A stretch of DNA of 64,000 bases from a virus. Below, one piece after another: positions 25,124-54,629 of this stretch (positions are counted from its first letter, which is position 1; every line of letters starts with the position of its first letter). The stretch covers positions 17,383 to 81,382 of the IMG/VR virus record IMGVR_UViG_3300033153_003354; one strand, given 5' to 3'. Under the pieces are notes generated by a model. That model saw only the letters and a list, made by a program, of their open reading frames with translations. It ran no database searches and was not told the DNA's origin. The position numbers and the translations under genes are program-made.

Positions 25124-25181
25124 AAAAAAAAGAAAAGGGAAGACTTATTGCCTTCCCTAAAAACGGTGCTTAAATCACCGT
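25124..25181 (-). terminator. Tandem hairpin-plus-T terminators after the capsid gene
   Basis: On the minus strand the first hairpin ACGGTG/CACCGT (25163-25181) overlaps the capsid stop codon and is followed by TTTTT. The second, GGGAAG/CTTCCC (25137-25157), is followed by a T-rich run (25124-25136). Two such structures right after the capsid gene would end most transcripts there. Confidence 0.7.
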
Positions 25182-25616
25182 CCCATCGATAACATATGCA
25201 GCGTCTGTTTGTACTGCCTTTGTTTTGAAGAACTTTCTCATGTATGCCAAATCGACACCACGTGAGCCAACTCTTTCAAGTTCAATAGATGTTGCTCTTT
25301 GTGAGAAAACAGCATACGCTGGTTTATCAAAGACCAAAATTTCATCTACTGGAGTAAACAATACAACAGCATTTCCATCTTTATCCTTGTAAGAAACCTT
25401 TTTTGTTCTTACAAGTTCCATGTCCCAAACTTCTTTAATGTAGTCTTTTGCTAACATTTTAGAATTAATAACCCATTCGAATTGAGAAATTCTATTATAT
25501 TGAGCTGTGTTTAGGCATATATGAGATGCATCGAATCCAGCATCTTCAATAGTAAGTTGTGCTGCTGTTATGTCATCCAATATATCTTGATCTGATGCAG
25601 TAACCCATGAATTCAT
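25170..25616 (-). CDS. Major capsid protein, C-terminal part (HK97 fold)
   Basis: 148 residues. The pattern ILDDITAAQLTIEDAG then HICLNTAQYNRI corresponds to the HK97-fold A-domain segment 'x-D-x-I-x-x-A-x-x-x-I-x-x-A-G ... N-x-x-x-Y', and the C-terminal strand is typical of capsid P-domains. The ATG at 25616 lies within the upstream reading frame (ATGA overlap). The frame stays open upstream of this ATG to the poly-A run at 25648-25651, where the two halves would join. Confidence 0.7.
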   Translation of the reverse strand: MNSWVTASDQDILDDITAAQLTIEDAGFDASHICLNTAQYNRISQFEWVINSKMLAKDYIKEVWDMELVRTKKVSYKDKDGNAVVLFTPVDEILVFDKPAYAVFSQRATSIELERVGSRGVDLAYMRKFFKTKAVQTDAAYVIDGTVI

Positions 25617-25975
25617 AGCTGCAACAGGTGTTGGTCCACCATAGTAATTTTGGCTTCATCGGTGATTGCAATTCTTTCTTCCCACTGTTCTAGCTGATAA
25701 GTAACCCCTTCTTCGAGATTAACTTTCTGTTCTCCAGTTTCTGCTCCTTCTGGCTTTTTCATTGCAGTTAGATTTGACCAAATTACAAATTTACCAATCA
25801 ATCCCATTGATGGGGGTAGTGGGTTATTAATTGTAATATTCCCAATTATACTATAGTCTGCTGCAACTTTAAGTACACTGTCCAGCATTTGAGAAAACTG
25901 CGCTCTAGTTCTTTTGTCCACGGCATCTGCATGTAGCCATTTGCCAGGAACTCCTTCATTTCCACTTGTAGGCAT
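25613..25975 (-). CDS. Major capsid protein, N-terminal part (HK97 fold)
   Basis: 120 residues. It begins with an N-arm, then a P-domain strand and the E-loop region ending WEERIAITDEA, the pattern that normally leads into the long spine helix of HK97-type capsid proteins. The reading frame stops after KITMVDQHLLQL. Even if joined to the next frame, the sum (about 268 residues) is short and the spine helix is not obvious, so a deletion, an indel or a two-chain capsid must be considered. Confidence 0.65.
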   Translation of the reverse strand: MPTSGNEGVPGKWLHADAVDKRTRAQFSQMLDSVLKVAADYSIIGNITINNPLPPSMGLIGKFVIWSNLTAMKKPEGAETGEQKVNLEEGVTYQLEQWEERIAITDEAKITMVDQHLLQL

Positions 25976-42301: not shown

Positions 42302-42516
42302 ATCAAGAAACTGGATGGAGCATCGAGGATATAACCTATGGTGGTATTGTATGGAGAGTTATAACATCAAATAACCAACCAAGAGGATTCATTTTTCGAC
42401 CTACCAAAGATGTGCCTTTTGCATATCGACCAGGAAGTGAATACGAATTATTGCAAGAAGAAGATTTGATTGCTATATCCAAACTGTTTAAATTTGTTAA
42501 TGGGATGATAAAATGA
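42289..42516 (+). CDS. Hypothetical protein, 75 aa
   Basis: ATG 42289 is in the end of paralogue B. Beta-rich (YGGIVWRVITSN) with a helical end. It overlaps the methyltransferase gene by 4 bases, so it may be a partner or regulator of it. Confidence 0.65.
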   Translation: MQHIDQETGWSIEDITYGGIVWRVITSNNQPRGFIFRPTKDVPFAYRPGSEYELLQEEDLIAISKLFKFVNGMIK

Positions 42517-44657
42517 AAAGTGAATATTTAATTGGTGATGCCAAAGATGTGTTGAAAACACTACCAGATAAACATTTTCAGTGTGTTGTTACAAGTCCTC
42601 CTTATTGGGGGTTGCGATCATATTTGCCCGATGATGATGCAGAGAAAAAGAACGAACTTGGTACTGAACAAACACCAGAAGAATATGTTGCCAACCTAGT
42701 TGATGTTTTTCGTGAAGTAAAAAGGGTGTTACGTGACGATGGAAATGTTTGGTTGAACCTGGGCGATAGTTATGCTTCATCTGCTACTGGATCATTTAAT
42801 GGAGGAGGATTCAAAGATTCTTCTGCAAAATCGGGTGGTAGAAATTTATCTGGAGTAGAATCAAGTGGAAAAATGGATAAATTAAAAGCAAGTGGACTCA
42901 AACCAAAAGATTTGGTTGGAATCCCGTGGCGTGTCGCATTTGCACTTCAGCAGGACGGTTGGTGGTTACGCCAGGATATAATATGGTGTCTATCAGGAGG
43001 AACCTATCTATACGTCAAATCACAGAAGGGAATCATGCCGATGACGGTGAAAGATTTATACCGACTCGATTTGACAAAATGTCAATTATGGAACGGTGAT
43101 AAATGGACTAATATACTCGGTATGAACAAATCTAAACGAAAAGGCGATGAGTTGGAAATGGTTTTACGAAGCGGAGAAAGAATATCATGTACACCAAATC
43201 ATAAATTCCCAACCGAAAGAGGAAATATAGAAGCATTGGAAATCGAAATTGGGGATGTAATTGAATCTGTTATGTTGCCCGATGGGAACACACCAGAATA
43301 TATCAATGCTGAAATGGCATGGTTTATTGGCATCTATTTGGCGGAAGGGTCTAAAAGCGGAAGTGCGTTGCAGATAGCGGGACATGTCAAAGAAAAAACT
43401 CGGTGGGAACGCATACAGCAAATGGTGAAGTATTATGGGGGCTCTTGTACCCGTACAATATCCGGCAATAAAATGGACATCCGGGTTTATGGTAGAATCA
43501 TTCATGCTATCATAACTGAACATATTTCTGGAAGAATAGCAAAGAACAAAGGACTGTCTAATAAATGTTGGCAATACGATAACAAGTTTTTGGATAACTT
43601 ACTAACTGGGTATCTGGAAGGTGACGGTCATTGGGACAAGGAAAATAAAAGGTGGCGACTCGGATTCACACGAAACTATAATCTTGAACGTGATTTGAGA
43701 TCGTTGTCTGCAAGGCTGGGATATTCCATAACATTAAAACCCAACATATCGGAAAATACCGTAACAGGGAAAAAACACCCATCATTCAGAGGCGAAATTA
43801 GGAAAACCGTATCTAATCACCACAATAATAAATCAAGAAATGAAGTGGTTGAAATTCGTAAAGCAAGATGTAGGTATGTGTATGACTTGGGTGTTGAGGA
43901 TTACCCACATACATTTTCGTTGGCAAGTGGTATATTAACACACAACTCAAAGCCCAATCCTATGCCAGAAAGTGTTACCGACAGATGCACAAAATCCCAC
44001 GAATACGTCTTTTTGTTGACTAAATCGGCAAGATATTATTACGATTCTGATGCAATAAGGGAAAACCACGACCACCCATCAATAAATCATAAATCGGATA
44101 GAAAAACCACTGAACAAGAAAAATCGTTCATCGGAAAAGCACCAACAAATTTAGGTAGATGTGGTAACAACCCAAACGGCAGAAACAAACGCTCGGTGTG
44201 GACAATTAATACAAAACCGTATAAGGAAGCTCATTTCGCAGTATTTCCGCCAGAATTACCAGAACTGTGCATAAAAGCTGGAACAAGTGCCAAAGGACAA
44301 TGCTCGAAATGTGGAAATCCTTGGATTAGAGAAATTGAGAAAATACAAACCAACAAAAGCAACGAAAAAGGTATAACTGAAATGATAGAAAAAGGTGTTC
44401 CAAGACAAAAAGCAAATTTATATGTTACACAAAAAAGAGGAACAAATAAAACAATCGGATGGAAACCAACATGTGATTGCAATGCAAAAATCGTACCACA
44501 AATCGTTCTAGATCCCTTTGCCGGAAGTGGGACAACAATTATGGTTGCAAAGGAACTTGGCAGACATGGTATTGGAATTGATCTCAATGATAAATATCGT
44601 GAAATTGCTGTCCGAAGATGTAATTTAGATGTTGAATCAGTGGAGGATTTCTTTTGA
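42513..44657 (+). CDS. DNA methyltransferase (class beta) with intein
   Basis: 714 residues before splicing; about 394 after. Catalytic motif TSPPYW is at residues 27-32 and the AdoMet-binding DPFAGSGTT at about 667-675, the beta order of amino-group (N6-adenine or N4-cytosine) DNA methyltransferases. CSKCGNP and CDC give an inserted zinc knuckle. The protein ends VESVEDFF, a PIP-like tail that would couple methylation to replication by PCNA. An intein interrupts the conserved IIW-SKPNPMPES. Likely protects viral DNA or regulates it. Confidence 0.93.
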   Translation: MKSEYLIGDAKDVLKTLPDKHFQCVVTSPPYWGLRSYLPDDDAEKKNELGTEQTPEEYVANLVDVFREVKRVLRDDGNVWLNLGDSYASSATGSFNGGGFKDSSAKSGGRNLSGVESSGKMDKLKASGLKPKDLVGIPWRVAFALQQDGWWLRQDIIWCLSGGTYLYVKSQKGIMPMTVKDLYRLDLTKCQLWNGDKWTNILGMNKSKRKGDELEMVLRSGERISCTPNHKFPTERGNIEALEIEIGDVIESVMLPDGNTPEYINAEMAWFIGIYLAEGSKSGSALQIAGHVKEKTRWERIQQMVKYYGGSCTRTISGNKMDIRVYGRIIHAIITEHISGRIAKNKGLSNKCWQYDNKFLDNLLTGYLEGDGHWDKENKRWRLGFTRNYNLERDLRSLSARLGYSITLKPNISENTVTGKKHPSFRGEIRKTVSNHHNNKSRNEVVEIRKARCRYVYDLGVEDYPHTFSLASGILTHNSKPNPMPESVTDRCTKSHEYVFLLTKSARYYYDSDAIRENHDHPSINHKSDRKTTEQEKSFIGKAPTNLGRCGNNPNGRNKRSVWTINTKPYKEAHFAVFPPELPELCIKAGTSAKGQCSKCGNPWIREIEKIQTNKSNEKGITEMIEKGVPRQKANLYVTQKRGTNKTIGWKPTCDCNAKIVPQIVLDPFAGSGTTIMVAKELGRHGIGIDLNDKYREIAVRRCNLDVESVEDFF
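42987..43946 (+). mobile_element. Intein with LAGLIDADG homing endonuclease, 320 aa
   Basis: Begins with Cys (CLSGGTYLYVKS), has block B GERISCTPNHKF, endonuclease motifs WFIGIYLAEGS and LLTGYLEGDGHW, block F VYDLGVEDYPHTF, and ends ASGILTHN followed by Ser+1 of the extein. All splicing residues (Cys1, block-B Thr/His, final Asn, +1 Ser) are present. The insertion point is inside a catalytic-domain motif, typical of inteins. Confidence 0.93.
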
Positions 44658-47427: not shown

Positions 47428-47688
47428 GGTTAAAAAATAATTATTTTCAAAATTTTTGGATTTTTTCGATCCGCATTAAAATTTTTCAGAAAAAATAAAA
47501 ATAAAAATAAAAATAAATATCGAAAAATCTCTACCAATTGACGACCTTTTATATTTCCGAAAAGTTATAAATATATTTCTCTGGAGCTAGAAATCTCTAC
47601 CAATTGAGTCAATTACGTTTTGGTTTAATTATTTGTCGTTCCGATAAAAAATAAACCAAGTTCCAAAAAATCTCTACCAATTGAGGGT
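47428..47688. other. AT-rich non-coding region
   Basis: No gene. It holds A-rich runs (AAAAATAAAAATAAAAATAA), a TATA box (AGTTATAAATATATTTC, about 47562-47578) and three of the four 17-base direct repeats. Confidence 0.5.
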
Positions 47689-47950
47689 GCTGGGACACAA
47701 AAAAGAGGTGATTTTGTCCAACCGAGCTGTGTCCCAGCGAAGTGATACAGGTCTGCCCGGTTTCTTACAGTGTTTCCATCCGTTTGTAAACCACTATATG
47801 ATGCACGTAGTATAAATACTTTCCTACCCCAAAGATGTTTTGCTGGACAAATGTCCAAATAACCACTTGGTTAAGAGTAAAATGACCGATTATAACACCG
47901 AAATAACCACTAAATTAAATTTTCGTCTGGTCAAAATCCCTACCAATTGA
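47525..47950 (+). repeat. Four direct repeats of AAATCTCTACCAATTGA
   Basis: Copies at 47525-47541, 47591-47607, 47668-47684 (identical) and 47934-47950 (one mismatch, CCC for CTC). Spacing is 66, 77 and 266 bases. The common core is 17 bases and flanks do not match. They could be iterons of an origin, protein-binding sites, or remnants of a CRISPR-like array. Confidence 0.8.
47689..47762 (+). ncRNA. Putative pseudoknotted RNA element
   Basis: A perfect 11-bp inverted repeat GCTGGGACACA/TGTGTCCCAGC (47689-47699 with 47728-47738). The last 8 loop bases AACCGAGC (47720-47727) can pair with GCCCGGTT (47755-47762) with one mismatch, giving an H-type pseudoknot with no gap between stems. It follows directly after repeat copy 3. 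Confidence 0.45.
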
Positions 47951-48142: not shown

Positions 48143-48586
48143 TTAATCATCCTCATCCAGCTCATTATCATCCAAGATGTCATATTTGTCTAACAATGAT
48201 TTGATCTCACCAGTTTCTTCAGCTTCCTTAACCTCTTTGATAGCTTGGCGCACCAAATATTGTACCATTTTCTTACTTGCCCTCTGACTTACCTTCTTTA
48301 CATGGAAGGATCCAACATTTATGTTTATATTTTGTCGTAATTCCAATATCATCTGTATATCTTGGAAGGCAATTGTCTTTCCCGGCATTTTCGCAGCACA
48401 TCCAGCCACATCCTCAACAATCGTATTCACAACCAGGTTGATCGCATCAATAACTTCAGCAGAGATACGTTTGCCACTCCCATCCTTGAGAGCTTTCCGC
48501 ACCAAAGATTTGTTAATCATCATTGGGAGATCCTCTGCTCGTTGCTCGTCCATGCCTTTCTCTAATATCTCAAATACTTCCATCAT
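48143..48586 (-). CDS. Histone-fold protein
   Basis: 147 residues. Residues about 23-85 follow the archaeal histone order: helix 1 INKSLVRKALKDGSGKRIS, long helix 2 AEVIDAINLVVNTIVED, loop MPGKTIAFQD and helix 3 IQMIL. A helical extension (VSQRASKKMVQYLVRQAI) and an acidic tail follow. It would bind and compact viral or host DNA, or act as a regulator. It stands alone in the gene-poor region; a minus-strand TATA (GGTTTTTATACATC) lies near 48664-48678. Confidence 0.75.
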   Translation of the reverse strand: MMEVFEILEKGMDEQRAEDLPMMINKSLVRKALKDGSGKRISAEVIDAINLVVNTIVEDVAGCAAKMPGKTIAFQDIQMILELRQNININVGSFHVKKVSQRASKKMVQYLVRQAIKEVKEAEETGEIKSLLDKYDILDDNELDEDD

Positions 48587-52676: not shown

Positions 52677-52838
52677 ATGATAACAGTAACACATTGTAAT
52701 AAATGTAAGGGCGATGGATCTTATCTAACTGGTGGAAACAGAGAACGAAAAATATATGGTCCAGGTGGATCACAAACGTTTAAGACATGTAGTAAATGTA
52801 ATGGAACTGGTCATGTTGTTAAAGAGGTGAGTAAATGA
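52677..52838 (+). CDS. DnaJ-type zinc-finger protein, 53 aa
   Basis: CNKCKGDGSY and CSKCNGTGHV are two C-x-x-C-x-G-x-G motifs, separated by a glycine-rich arm as in DnaJ zinc modules. It resembles the gene at 40468. May bind unfolded proteins or be a structural zinc adaptor. Confidence 0.7.
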   Translation: MITVTHCNKCKGDGSYLTGGNRERKIYGPGGSQTFKTCSKCNGTGHVVKEVSK

Positions 52839-52924
52839 CATGTTTAGAATGTGGATGCCCAATGATAAGAGAACAGTATGGAAGATGTCAATGTGATTGT
52901 GAGTGGTGCGATCCTGATTTATAG
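52835..52924 (+). CDS. Cysteine-rich mini-protein, 29 aa
   Basis: Overlaps the previous stop as ATGA. MTCLECGCPMIREQYGRC then QCDCEWC: seven cysteines in 29 residues, a metallothionein-like or compact zinc-knuckle design. Confidence 0.5.
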   Translation: MTCLECGCPMIREQYGRCQCDCEWCDPDL

Positions 52925-52931
52925 GACCAAT

Positions 52932-52943
52932 AAGTTTATATAC
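52932..52943 (+). promoter_or_regulatory. TATA promoter
   Basis: AAGTTTATATAC, followed by the leader ACCATCATTATTAGG and AAGGTGAAA before ATG 52980. Similar leaders occur at 56748 and 62552. Confidence 0.68.
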
Positions 52944-52979
52944 TACCATCATTATTAGGTTGTTAAGGTGAAACCAAAG

Positions 52980-53210
52980 ATGGAAAACAAAGTGAAGGTG
53001 GAACATGTGATTAATCATATAAAAATAAAAGAAGAAATACAAAGATTAATAGAATTGGACAAGCAAGAAAGAGAAATACTTCTTGATATTACTAATAAAA
53101 CAGAAAAAGTAATTGCTGATATTAAATTTTTAAATGGTAGAATGCATGCATATAATATGGTATTACATTTAATGGATAAACAAGAATTTCAATATGTGGA
53201 GGATTTGTGA
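52980..53210 (+). CDS. Coiled-coil protein, 76 aa
   Basis: MENKVKVEHVINHIK; a heptad-rich helix covers most of it. GTG 52968 is another possible start, but AAGGTGA sits at proper distance from ATG 52980. Next gene also begins MENKV. Confidence 0.65.
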   Translation: MENKVKVEHVINHIKIKEEIQRLIELDKQEREILLDITNKTEKVIADIKFLNGRMHAYNMVLHLMDKQEFQYVEDL

Positions 53211-53399
53211 ATGGAAAACAAAGTGACAAAGGATGATTTACGAGTATGTGAAGTAATGATTCCAAATGAATTATGTGTGCTGAAGGCAAATAATCATATT
53301 GGTGATGATGTATATATTGTCAGACCACACTCTACCAATTATGATACAAAGATATGTAAGAATTGTACATTTCAACAAATGTGCAGGAATTCACAGTAG
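53211..53399 (+). CDS. Zinc-binding protein, 62 aa
   Basis: MENKVTKDDLRVCEVMIPNE; cysteines at C-terminus CKNCTFQQMC with one earlier. Adjacent to prior stop. Unknown. Confidence 0.6.
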   Translation: MENKVTKDDLRVCEVMIPNELCVLKANNHIGDDVYIVRPHSTNYDTKICKNCTFQQMCRNSQ

Positions 53400-53409
53400 G
53401 TGAAACAAA

Positions 53410-53814
53410 ATGATAACATGGTTACTTCTTTGGTTTTTAGGATACCGTAGACTAATTGTAAACAGTAAAGAAACTTGTTTTAAATCCAAAGGTACAGTCA
53501 TTTGGATAGGTAAAGATGGAGTTTTATATTCATGGATGACAGATAGATATTCTATGTTTGGATATTCATGGTTCCGTAAAAAACCAAGTAGAAAATATTG
53601 GGGCGGGTATATTTCTGGTGGATGCTGGGAAAGTTATATTTTAGATGATCTTATTGGATATATAATAAAAGATCGTCCATCAAAGATGAAGGAACAAACA
53701 GAAATACTAGTTATAAAATGCGTTCCAACATTTAGATGTGAATATGGTTTTGAAACAGATAACGTTCTTATAATGAACGATCATCATGTGGAGTGTTACA
53801 CATATGAAGGATAA
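53410..53814 (+). CDS. Hypothetical protein, 134 aa
   Basis: Hydrophobic N-terminus (ITWLLLWFLGYRRLIV), possibly a signal anchor, then aromatic beta-rich sequence with YWGGYISGGCWESY. Overlaps the next gene by 11 bases. Confidence 0.6.
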   Translation: MITWLLLWFLGYRRLIVNSKETCFKSKGTVIWIGKDGVLYSWMTDRYSMFGYSWFRKKPSRKYWGGYISGGCWESYILDDLIGYIIKDRPSKMKEQTEILVIKCVPTFRCEYGFETDNVLIMNDHHVECYTYEG

Positions 53815-54088
53815 ACGAATTTTTAAATACAAATTAAACATAATCGATAGTCAATATATTCCAATGCCACAAGGTTCACAAATTCTATCAGTCAAAGAAC
53901 AAAATGGAACATTAAATATATGGGCAATAGTAGATATAAATAATGATAATATCAAAAATAGATGGTTTTACATCTTTGGAACAGGAAATGAATTTGATAT
54001 ATCTCTTGATGATGCTAAATTTATTGGCACTGTGGTAATGTCAAATGGTCTAGTATGGCACGTTTTTGATGGTGGAGAAACACAATGA
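53804..54088 (+). CDS. DUF7352-like phage protein, 94 aa
   Basis: The protein follows a widespread small phage family: KYKLNIIDSQYIPMPQGSQI, LSVKEQNGTLNIWAIVD, IFGTGNEFD, and the terminal GLVWHVFDGG. Function of the family is not known. ATG 53804 chosen by alignment to the usual start (W/F-KYxL). Confidence 0.8.
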   Translation: MKDKRIFKYKLNIIDSQYIPMPQGSQILSVKEQNGTLNIWAIVDINNDNIKNRWFYIFGTGNEFDISLDDAKFIGTVVMSNGLVWHVFDGGETQ

Positions 54089-54113
54089 ATAAAAATGAAC
54101 AATATCGACACAC

Positions 54114-54205
54114 CTCCCACCTGACCCAGACAGGTGTAAATTATTCTGGGTGGAGCGGGGATCTCTCGGTCCCGTCACCGAGTCCAGGCGGTGAGTATCC
54201 TGGAC
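54114..54205 (+). ncRNA. GC-rich block of interlocked inverted repeats (pseudoknot-like RNA)
   Basis: GC content is far above the surroundings (57 of 95 bases in 54111-54205). Interlocked pairs: CACCTG/CAGGTG (54118/54131) with ACCCAGA/TCTGGGT (54124/54145), the latter extendable by CTCC/GGAG; CGGG/CCCG (54156/54171) with CTCGGT/ACCGAG (54165/54177); TCACCG/CGGTGA (54175/54189) with GTCCAGG/CCTGGAC (54182/54199). The geometry suits tandem H-type pseudoknots or mutually exclusive hairpins. An open frame (54085-54249) also crosses it, so coding cannot be excluded. Confidence 0.5.
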
Positions 54206-54223
54206 ATCATCTTTGGGTCCATA

Positions 54224-54236
54224 AACTATATATACT
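54224..54236 (+). promoter_or_regulatory. TATA promoter
   Basis: AAACTATATATACTTCC, preceded by a CCAAAGATG word on the minus strand (54208-54216), followed by a leader with TTAGAGGTG before ATG 54270. Confidence 0.68.
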
Positions 54237-54269
54237 TCCACTACTATAGGGTATTAGAGGTGTCACAAA

Positions 54270-54476
54270 ATGAACCAAGAAACAAACCATAAAAGTGAGC
54301 CACACGACAAGTTCATAGTAAAATGGGTCCAGGAGGAGAATGATGGAAATCTTGTTGAATTAAAAGATGATTTCAACTCACTTCATGATGTAAACGAACA
54401 CATCACTCAACTACGACTCTATGCAGAACATACAGGAAAAACTTTCAAAGTAATATCTATTACAGAGGTGATCTAG
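54270..54476 (+). CDS. Hypothetical protein, 68 aa
   Basis: Small alpha/beta protein with HDKFIVKWVQEENDGNLVEL; promoter and AGAGGTG leader support the start. No family recognised. Confidence 0.65.
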   Translation: MNQETNHKSEPHDKFIVKWVQEENDGNLVELKDDFNSLHDVNEHITQLRLYAEHTGKTFKVISITEVI

Positions 54477-54629
54477 ATGATCGAAGATGATGTTAAATAC
54501 ATATGTCCAGATGCACCAGGTGGATGCAAATCATTGCATTGTTATCACAAAAATCCACATCAACATATAGATTATTATTGTGACACAGATGGAAAAATAT
54601 GTGGTCATGTTTGTGAGAAGGTGGAATGA
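54477..54629 (+). CDS. Cysteine-rich protein, 50 aa
   Basis: Six cysteines and several histidines (CPDAPGGCKSLHCYH, then YYCDTDGKICGHVC) suggest two metal sites. Overlaps the next ATG. Confidence 0.6.
   Translation: MIEDDVKYICPDAPGGCKSLHCYHKNPHQHIDYYCDTDGKICGHVCEKVE

What the first reader, a model, noticed from the sequence alone, without database searches (positions are those of the whole stretch)
54114..54205. Triple interlocked inverted repeats in a GC-rich island
A 95-base GC-rich stretch in AT-rich DNA carries three consecutive pairs of overlapping inverted repeats in A-B-A'-B' order, the signature of H-type pseudoknots: stems 6+7, 4+6 and 6+7 bp, with zero or one base between stems. 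The middle and last share bases, so they would be exclusive. Repeated pseudoknots recall antitoxin RNAs of type III toxin-antitoxin systems, viral tRNA-like ends or decoys, but the units do not share sequence. The block ends next to a CCAAAGATG word and a TATA box.
Basis: partly seen in the sequence, partly recalled or inferred. Interest (0 to 1): 0.8.

Follow-up and report, generated by a model that had tools for sequence, protein, structure and literature searches.

The report
Tandem pseudoknot RNA in archaeal virus
A short GC-rich stretch between two early genes of an uncultured archaeal tailed virus is very likely a non-coding RNA element that folds into two compact pseudoknots in a row; what it does is unknown, because no relative could be found to compare it with.

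Summary
The block is the most GC-rich 95-mer of a 33% GC window. Its two outer units are the two strongest H-type pseudoknots in the whole 64 kb (both strands, simple energy model). A chain this strong arose in 0 of 20,000 dinucleotide shuffles and 0 of 11,520 GC-matched real viral strand-windows. Refined, both units have one architecture on the + strand: 6-bp stem 1, a single A as loop 1, 6-7-bp stem 2, no junction base. The middle unit is weaker and excludes the third. Coding is unlikely: codon fit is the worst of 577 segments. The TATA box and CATCTTTGG word belong to the next gene's strong archaeal promoter, so the element lies at the 3' end of the preceding early operon. No ToxN-like toxin, Rfam family or homologue was found; searches gave only chance matches, so covariation is untestable. 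Most likely it is a 3'-UTR structured RNA that blocks exonucleases or is released as a small RNA; the structure is well supported statistically, the function is inferred. Type III antitoxin membership is not supported; a decoy role is not excluded.

The parts
54110..54205 (+). GC-rich non-coding island carrying the pseudoknot chain
   Evidence: richest 95-mer of the window; lowest codon adaptation of 577 segments
54118..54150 (+). PK1: S1 CACCTG 54118-54123/CAGGTG 54131-54136; L1 A54124; S2 CCCAGA 54125-54130/TCTGGG 54145-54150; L3 TAAATTAT 54137-54144
   Evidence: -16.2 kcal/mol against -9.3 for the best nested fold; second strongest H-type pseudoknot of the window
54151..54174 (+). middle segment: nested hairpin, or alternative pseudoknot with 54156-54182 (CGGG/CCCG crossed with CTCGGT/ACCGAG), exclusive with PK3
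54175..54205 (+). PK3: S1 TCACCG 54175-54180/CGGTGA 54189-54194; L1 A54181; S2 GTCCAGG 54182-54188/CCTGGAC 54199-54205; L3 GTAT 54195-54198
   Evidence: -20.5 kcal/mol against -9.6 nested; strongest H-type pseudoknot of the window
54110..54117 (+). ACACCTCC, single-stranded 5' lead in the refined fold; its first 7 bases are complementary to SD GAGGTGT 54257-54263 of the next gene
   Evidence: I2; inference
54219..54252 (+). archaeal promoter (BRE/TATA 54219-54235, start site inferred near 54252) of the gene at 54270; upstream word CATCTTTGG 54208-54216
   Evidence: top-scoring promoter of the virus by a matrix that includes this site among its four seeds
53786..54088 (+). DUF7352 gene, last gene of the upstream early operon
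   Evidence: PF24043 5.8e-25, phrog_3848 3.6e-25
54085..54249 (+). 54-codon open frame through the island, judged not to be a conventional gene
   Evidence: no Pfam hit; codon fit lowest of 577
54270..54476 (+). next gene, 68 aa, own promoter

Best explanation
The island is a + strand, non-coding structured RNA element of two architecture-matched H-type pseudoknots separated by a hairpin. It lies at the 3' end of the early operon that starts from the promoter at 52935 and ends with the DUF7352 gene, directly before the promoter of the next transcription unit. Most likely it works as a 3'-UTR element: the compact pseudoknots fold as the operon is transcribed, stop host exonucleases, and so fix and stabilise the 3' end of the operon mRNA, or remain as a released small RNA once the rest is degraded. 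Shown computationally: the arms, the excess of pseudoknots over chance, the + strand geometry, the poor coding fit and the position relative to the promoter. Inferred: transcription through it, folding in the cell, exonuclease blocking.
For: Chain energy 0/20,000 shuffles and 0/11,520 GC-matched viral strand-windows. Pseudoknotted form -46.3 against nested -35.5 kcal/mol (simple model). The two units rank first and second in the window; no further such site was reported in the other 17 kb of the record. Geometry: one A crosses the deep groove of stem 2, and 8 or 4 nt cross the shallow groove of stem 1; the minus strand would need 1 nt to cross a 7-bp stem, and the geometry-filtered chain falls to -30. 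Codon adaptation 0.32, below all 577 coding segments, against 0.54-0.75 for neighbouring genes. Strong promoters at 52935 and 54227 bracket the operon. The 181-nt gap is large where the median gap is 0.
Against: No homologue, so no covariation. No transcript data. No U-rich terminator after the block. A 54-codon frame with a coupled ATGA start runs through it. Energies come from a simple home-made model (9.6 kcal/mol initiation penalty, no tertiary terms). The exonuclease role has no direct support.
Confidence: 0.4

Rival explanations
1. Trans-acting pseudoknot RNA that binds and neutralises a host protein, for instance a ToxI-like decoy against a host type III toxin-antitoxin or another RNA-binding defence protein.
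For: Two pseudoknots of matched architecture with weakly shared core sequence, p = 0.02. Phages are known to carry pseudo-ToxI repeats that suppress ToxN (PMC5086642).
Against: Units differ in sequence and in L3 length; no ToxN-like gene among 54 scanned proteins or by PF13958 in the whole record (whose control did not ring); no own promoter on the + strand.
Confidence: 0.17
2. Cis-regulator of the next gene (54270) in read-through transcripts: the 5' lead ACACCTC pairs with the SD GAGGTGT when the pseudoknots are melted or bound.
For: Perfect 7-nt complementarity 54110-54116 / 54257-54263; island directly upstream of that gene.
Against: The gene has its own very strong promoter downstream of the island, so its main transcript should lack it; 7-nt complementarity to an SD is not rare.
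Confidence: 0.12
3. DNA-level element: clustered GC-rich palindromes bound by a regulator next to the promoter at 54227, or a recombination or insertion relic.
For: Immediately upstream of the virus's best-scoring promoter; several perfect interrupted palindromes.
Against: The other strong promoters follow AT-rich coding sequence with no such block. The repeats interlock with near-zero junctions and good RNA loop geometry on one strand only, which DNA operators do not require.
Confidence: 0.12
4. Minus-strand non-coding RNA starting near 54203 from the near-palindromic TATA at 54226-54235 and ending in the T-run at 54091-54098.
For: Spacing of TATA to the block end fits a start near 54203 (sequence, inference); oligo-T after the block on that strand.
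Against: The minus-strand site does not score as a promoter; pseudoknot geometry is poor on that strand.
Confidence: 0.08
5. A real 54-aa protein gene acquired from a GC-rich source; the inverted repeats are incidental.
For: Open frame with an ATGA-coupled start and GGTGG upstream; in-frame codon score better than the other two frames (-0.18 against -1.04 and -0.59).
Against: Codon adaptation the lowest of 577 segments; no protein match; frame runs into the promoter; an open frame of this length is likely by chance at this GC (inference); pseudoknot chain at p < 1e-4.
Confidence: 0.06

Closest known systems
Type III toxin-antitoxin RNA antitoxins (ToxI, CptI, TenpI)
   Same: Compact RNA pseudoknots in series; phage escape mutants can carry pseudo-ToxI repeats (PMC5086642).
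   Different: Here two sequence-diverged units, no toxin gene, no terminator, no near-identical tandem repeats.
T4-type gene 32 mRNA H-type pseudoknot
   Same: From general knowledge: a short loop 1 across stem 2 and stacked stems with no junction base, in a tailed virus.
   Different: Two in series at an operon 3' end rather than one in the 5' leader of an Ssb gene; no Ssb gene was recognised next to it.
3' pseudoknot chains of plant RNA viruses (tobamovirus upstream pseudoknot domain)
   Same: From general knowledge: consecutive H-type pseudoknots at a 3' end, thought to stabilise RNA and aid translation.
   Different: DNA virus of archaea; no tRNA-like end, no sequence match in Rfam.

Membership tests
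Type III toxin-antitoxin antitoxin RNA | two or more near-identical tandem repeats | tested here: not met
   two units with only weak similarity, shuffle p = 0.02
Type III toxin-antitoxin antitoxin RNA | ToxN/CptN/TenpN toxin gene directly downstream | tested here: not met
   no such family among 54 proteins of the region; PF13958 absent from the record, but the control did not ring
Type III toxin-antitoxin antitoxin RNA | Rho-independent terminator between repeats and toxin | tested here: not met
   no + strand terminator-like site in 52800-54600
Type III toxin-antitoxin antitoxin RNA | repeat folds as an H-type pseudoknot and binds the toxin | tested here: inconclusive
   fold predicted; binding not testable
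H-type pseudoknot RNA element (structural class) | two crossing stems with sterically feasible loops, beyond chance | tested here: met
   0/20,000 shuffles, 0/11,520 real windows
H-type pseudoknot RNA element (structural class) | compensatory changes in related sequences | not testable with these tools
   no relatives in viral contigs, phages, plasmids or 398 genomes
tRNA-like structure or tRNA decoy | tRNA fold with CCA-type end | tested here: not met
   ARAGORN and Rfam find only the tRNA-Arg at 829
any Rfam family | score above the gathering threshold | tested here: not met
   best sub-threshold hit E 1.7, 16 of 47 bits

The most novel reading that the evidence does not exclude
A new class of viral non-coding RNA: a tandem H-type pseudoknot RNA of archaeal tailed viruses, acting either as an exonuclease-blocking 3' element or as a protein decoy against host defence, neither of which I know to be described for archaeal DNA viruses.
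Probability: 0.35. Interest if true: 0.7.

Novelty: new variant of a known kind. Interest (0 to 1): 0.45.

Why it matters
Structured non-coding RNAs of archaeal viruses appear little described; a search of the open-access library for archaeal virus, pseudoknot and non-coding RNA together gave two papers, neither with such an element in its title or the opening of its abstract. If this one is real it offers a small, testable RNA for how archaeal viruses protect mRNA ends or disarm RNA-binding defences. It also shows that GC-rich islands in AT-rich viral genomes can flag RNA genes.

Tried and rejected
Relatives: exact PK3 20-mer, degenerate two-unit pattern (120 unrelated hits, scan stopped at its limit), degenerate PK1 pattern (two hits in GC-rich contigs, inside long open frames, without the same fold), adjacent protein, terminase and RFC (none), alignment-guided radical-SAM and RFC scans: best identities 49% and 46%; among the radical-SAM loci none shared the region around the island except a DUF7352 homologue in two contigs. 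An HCTV-16 28-nt DNA match lies inside a phosphoesterase gene with no pseudoknot: chance. Tandem-pseudoknot scan of 1.27 Mb of other viral loci gave mainly GC-rich hits chosen after the fact; not used as evidence of relatives. TnpB guide RNA considered and dropped: the TnpB gene is 20 kb away. tRNA, tRNA-like and Rfam riboswitch/ribozyme identities rejected.

Full report
What the window is. The window is part of an 81,382-bp virus record. Its translated genes include terminase and portal and, by my reading of the sequences, an archaeal-type replication set (PolB, PCNA, primase, XPF-like nuclease); tblastn puts RFC and PolB closest to haloarchaeal tailed viruses at 27-36% identity. Together with archaeal TATA boxes followed by GGTG ribosome-binding sites, this makes it a tailed virus of an archaeon. 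The host is not established: the radical-SAM gene is nearest a Methanomassiliicoccales virus and the TnpB gene nearest a Marsarchaeota genome at 59%.

The observation. It is the most GC-rich 95-mer of the window (60% against 33%).

Is it more than chance? Nested folding is unremarkable (z -1.1). With a simple H-type pseudoknot energy model (stacking energies, coaxial stack, 9.6 kcal/mol penalty, steric minimum loops), PK1 (54118-54150) scores -16.2 and PK3 (54175-54205) -20.5 kcal/mol, where the best nested folds of the same pieces give -9.3 and -9.6. These two are the strongest H-type pseudoknots in the whole window on either strand; the next on the + strand outside the island scores -13.7. 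The best chain in the block, -44.0, was not approached in 20,000 dinucleotide shuffles (best -33.3) nor in 11,520 strand-windows of 55-64% GC from other viral contigs (best -32.4). The pseudoknotted form of the block totals about -46 against -35.5 kcal/mol for the nested fold. No such site was reported in the other 17 kb of the record.

Anatomy. PK1 and PK3 share one plan: stem 1 of 6 bp, loop 1 a single A, stem 2 of 6 or 7 bp, no base at the junction, and loop 3 of 8 (TAAATTAT) or 4 (GTAT). Loop 1 of one nucleotide across the deep groove and a longer loop 3 across the shallow groove is the sterically favoured arrangement (general knowledge), and it holds only when the + strand is the RNA; read from the other strand PK3 would need one nucleotide to span a 7-bp stem, and the geometry-filtered chain falls to -30. 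The two units also align weakly in sequence (CACC..GA..CCAG..C.GGTG...TAT.CTGG, p = 0.02), so they may be diverged duplicates; this is suggestive only. The middle unit (54156-54182) is weaker and shares bases with PK3, so in the favoured fold the middle is a hairpin.

Not a conventional gene. A 54-codon frame crosses the block, but its GC-rich part has the lowest codon adaptation of 577 segments tested (0.32; neighbouring genes 0.54-0.75), although the in-frame codon score is better than the other two frames. It has no Pfam match and only chance matches in phage records, and it runs into a promoter. An open frame of this length is not unlikely at this GC (inference).

Context. The island lies after the DUF7352 gene (PF24043), the last gene of an operon whose promoter is at 52935, and just before the virus's best-scoring archaeal promoter at 54227, which serves the 68-aa gene at 54270 (that promoter is one of the four seeds of the matrix, so its top rank is partly built in). 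The transcript of that gene should start near 54252 and lack the island. Other strong promoters follow directly on AT-rich coding sequence. No intrinsic terminator is seen on the + strand nearby.

Relatives. None was found. All eight IMG/VR scans, phage and plasmid blastn, 398 archaeal genomes of one phylum (which lacks a positive control) and Rfam gave no homologue of the island. One 28-nt match in HCTV-16 is inside a coding gene and has no pseudoknot. Hence covariation, the decisive test, could not be done.

Interpretation. I favour a 3'-UTR element of the early operon that blocks exonucleases or persists as a small RNA (confidence 0.4 for the whole statement; about 0.8 that the pseudoknot chain is a real RNA feature). 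A protein-binding decoy of the ToxI kind comes second: the architecture fits, but membership in type III toxin-antitoxin systems fails on repeats, toxin and terminator (features from PMC5086642). Cis-control of 54270 through the 7-nt complementarity ACACCTC/GAGGTGT, a DNA-level operator, a minus-strand RNA and a small protein gene are less likely for the reasons given under the rivals.

Noticed in passing
whole window, e.g. 54208 (-), 51455 (-), 35929 (-), 52974 (+): The 9-mer CCAAAGATG occurs 39 times on both strands against 2.6 expected by an order-3 Markov model, with 7 more in the other 17 kb. Its reverse form lies about 14-19 nt before some TATA boxes and the word itself overlaps some start codons; function unknown.
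   Followed up: partly
47527, 47593, 47670, 47936 (+): Four copies of ATCTC(C)TACCAATTGA at irregular spacing in an intergenic region, next to a perfect hairpin GCTGGGACACA...TGTGTCCCAGC near 47688-47738; the hairpin's 5' arm could also pair with TTTTGTCC. Possible origin or RNA element; folding z-score only -0.2.
   Followed up: partly
54227, 52935, 60100 (+), 51500 (-): Four near-identical strong archaeal promoters, with conserved sequence from TATA box down to the SD, possibly marking an early regulon.
   Followed up: partly
42513-44657 (+): DNA methyltransferase-like frame with a long central insert that reads like an intein (sequence impression).
   Followed up: no
25170-25975 (-): The probable major capsid region is split into two overlapping frames (148 and 120 aa) joined by ATGA (sequence impression).
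   Followed up: no
TGGATCCA, 11 sites in the window: Palindrome over-represented (22 strand counts against 4.0 expected).
   Followed up: no
48143-48586 (-): 147-aa protein that looks like a histone-fold protein (sequence impression).
   Followed up: no
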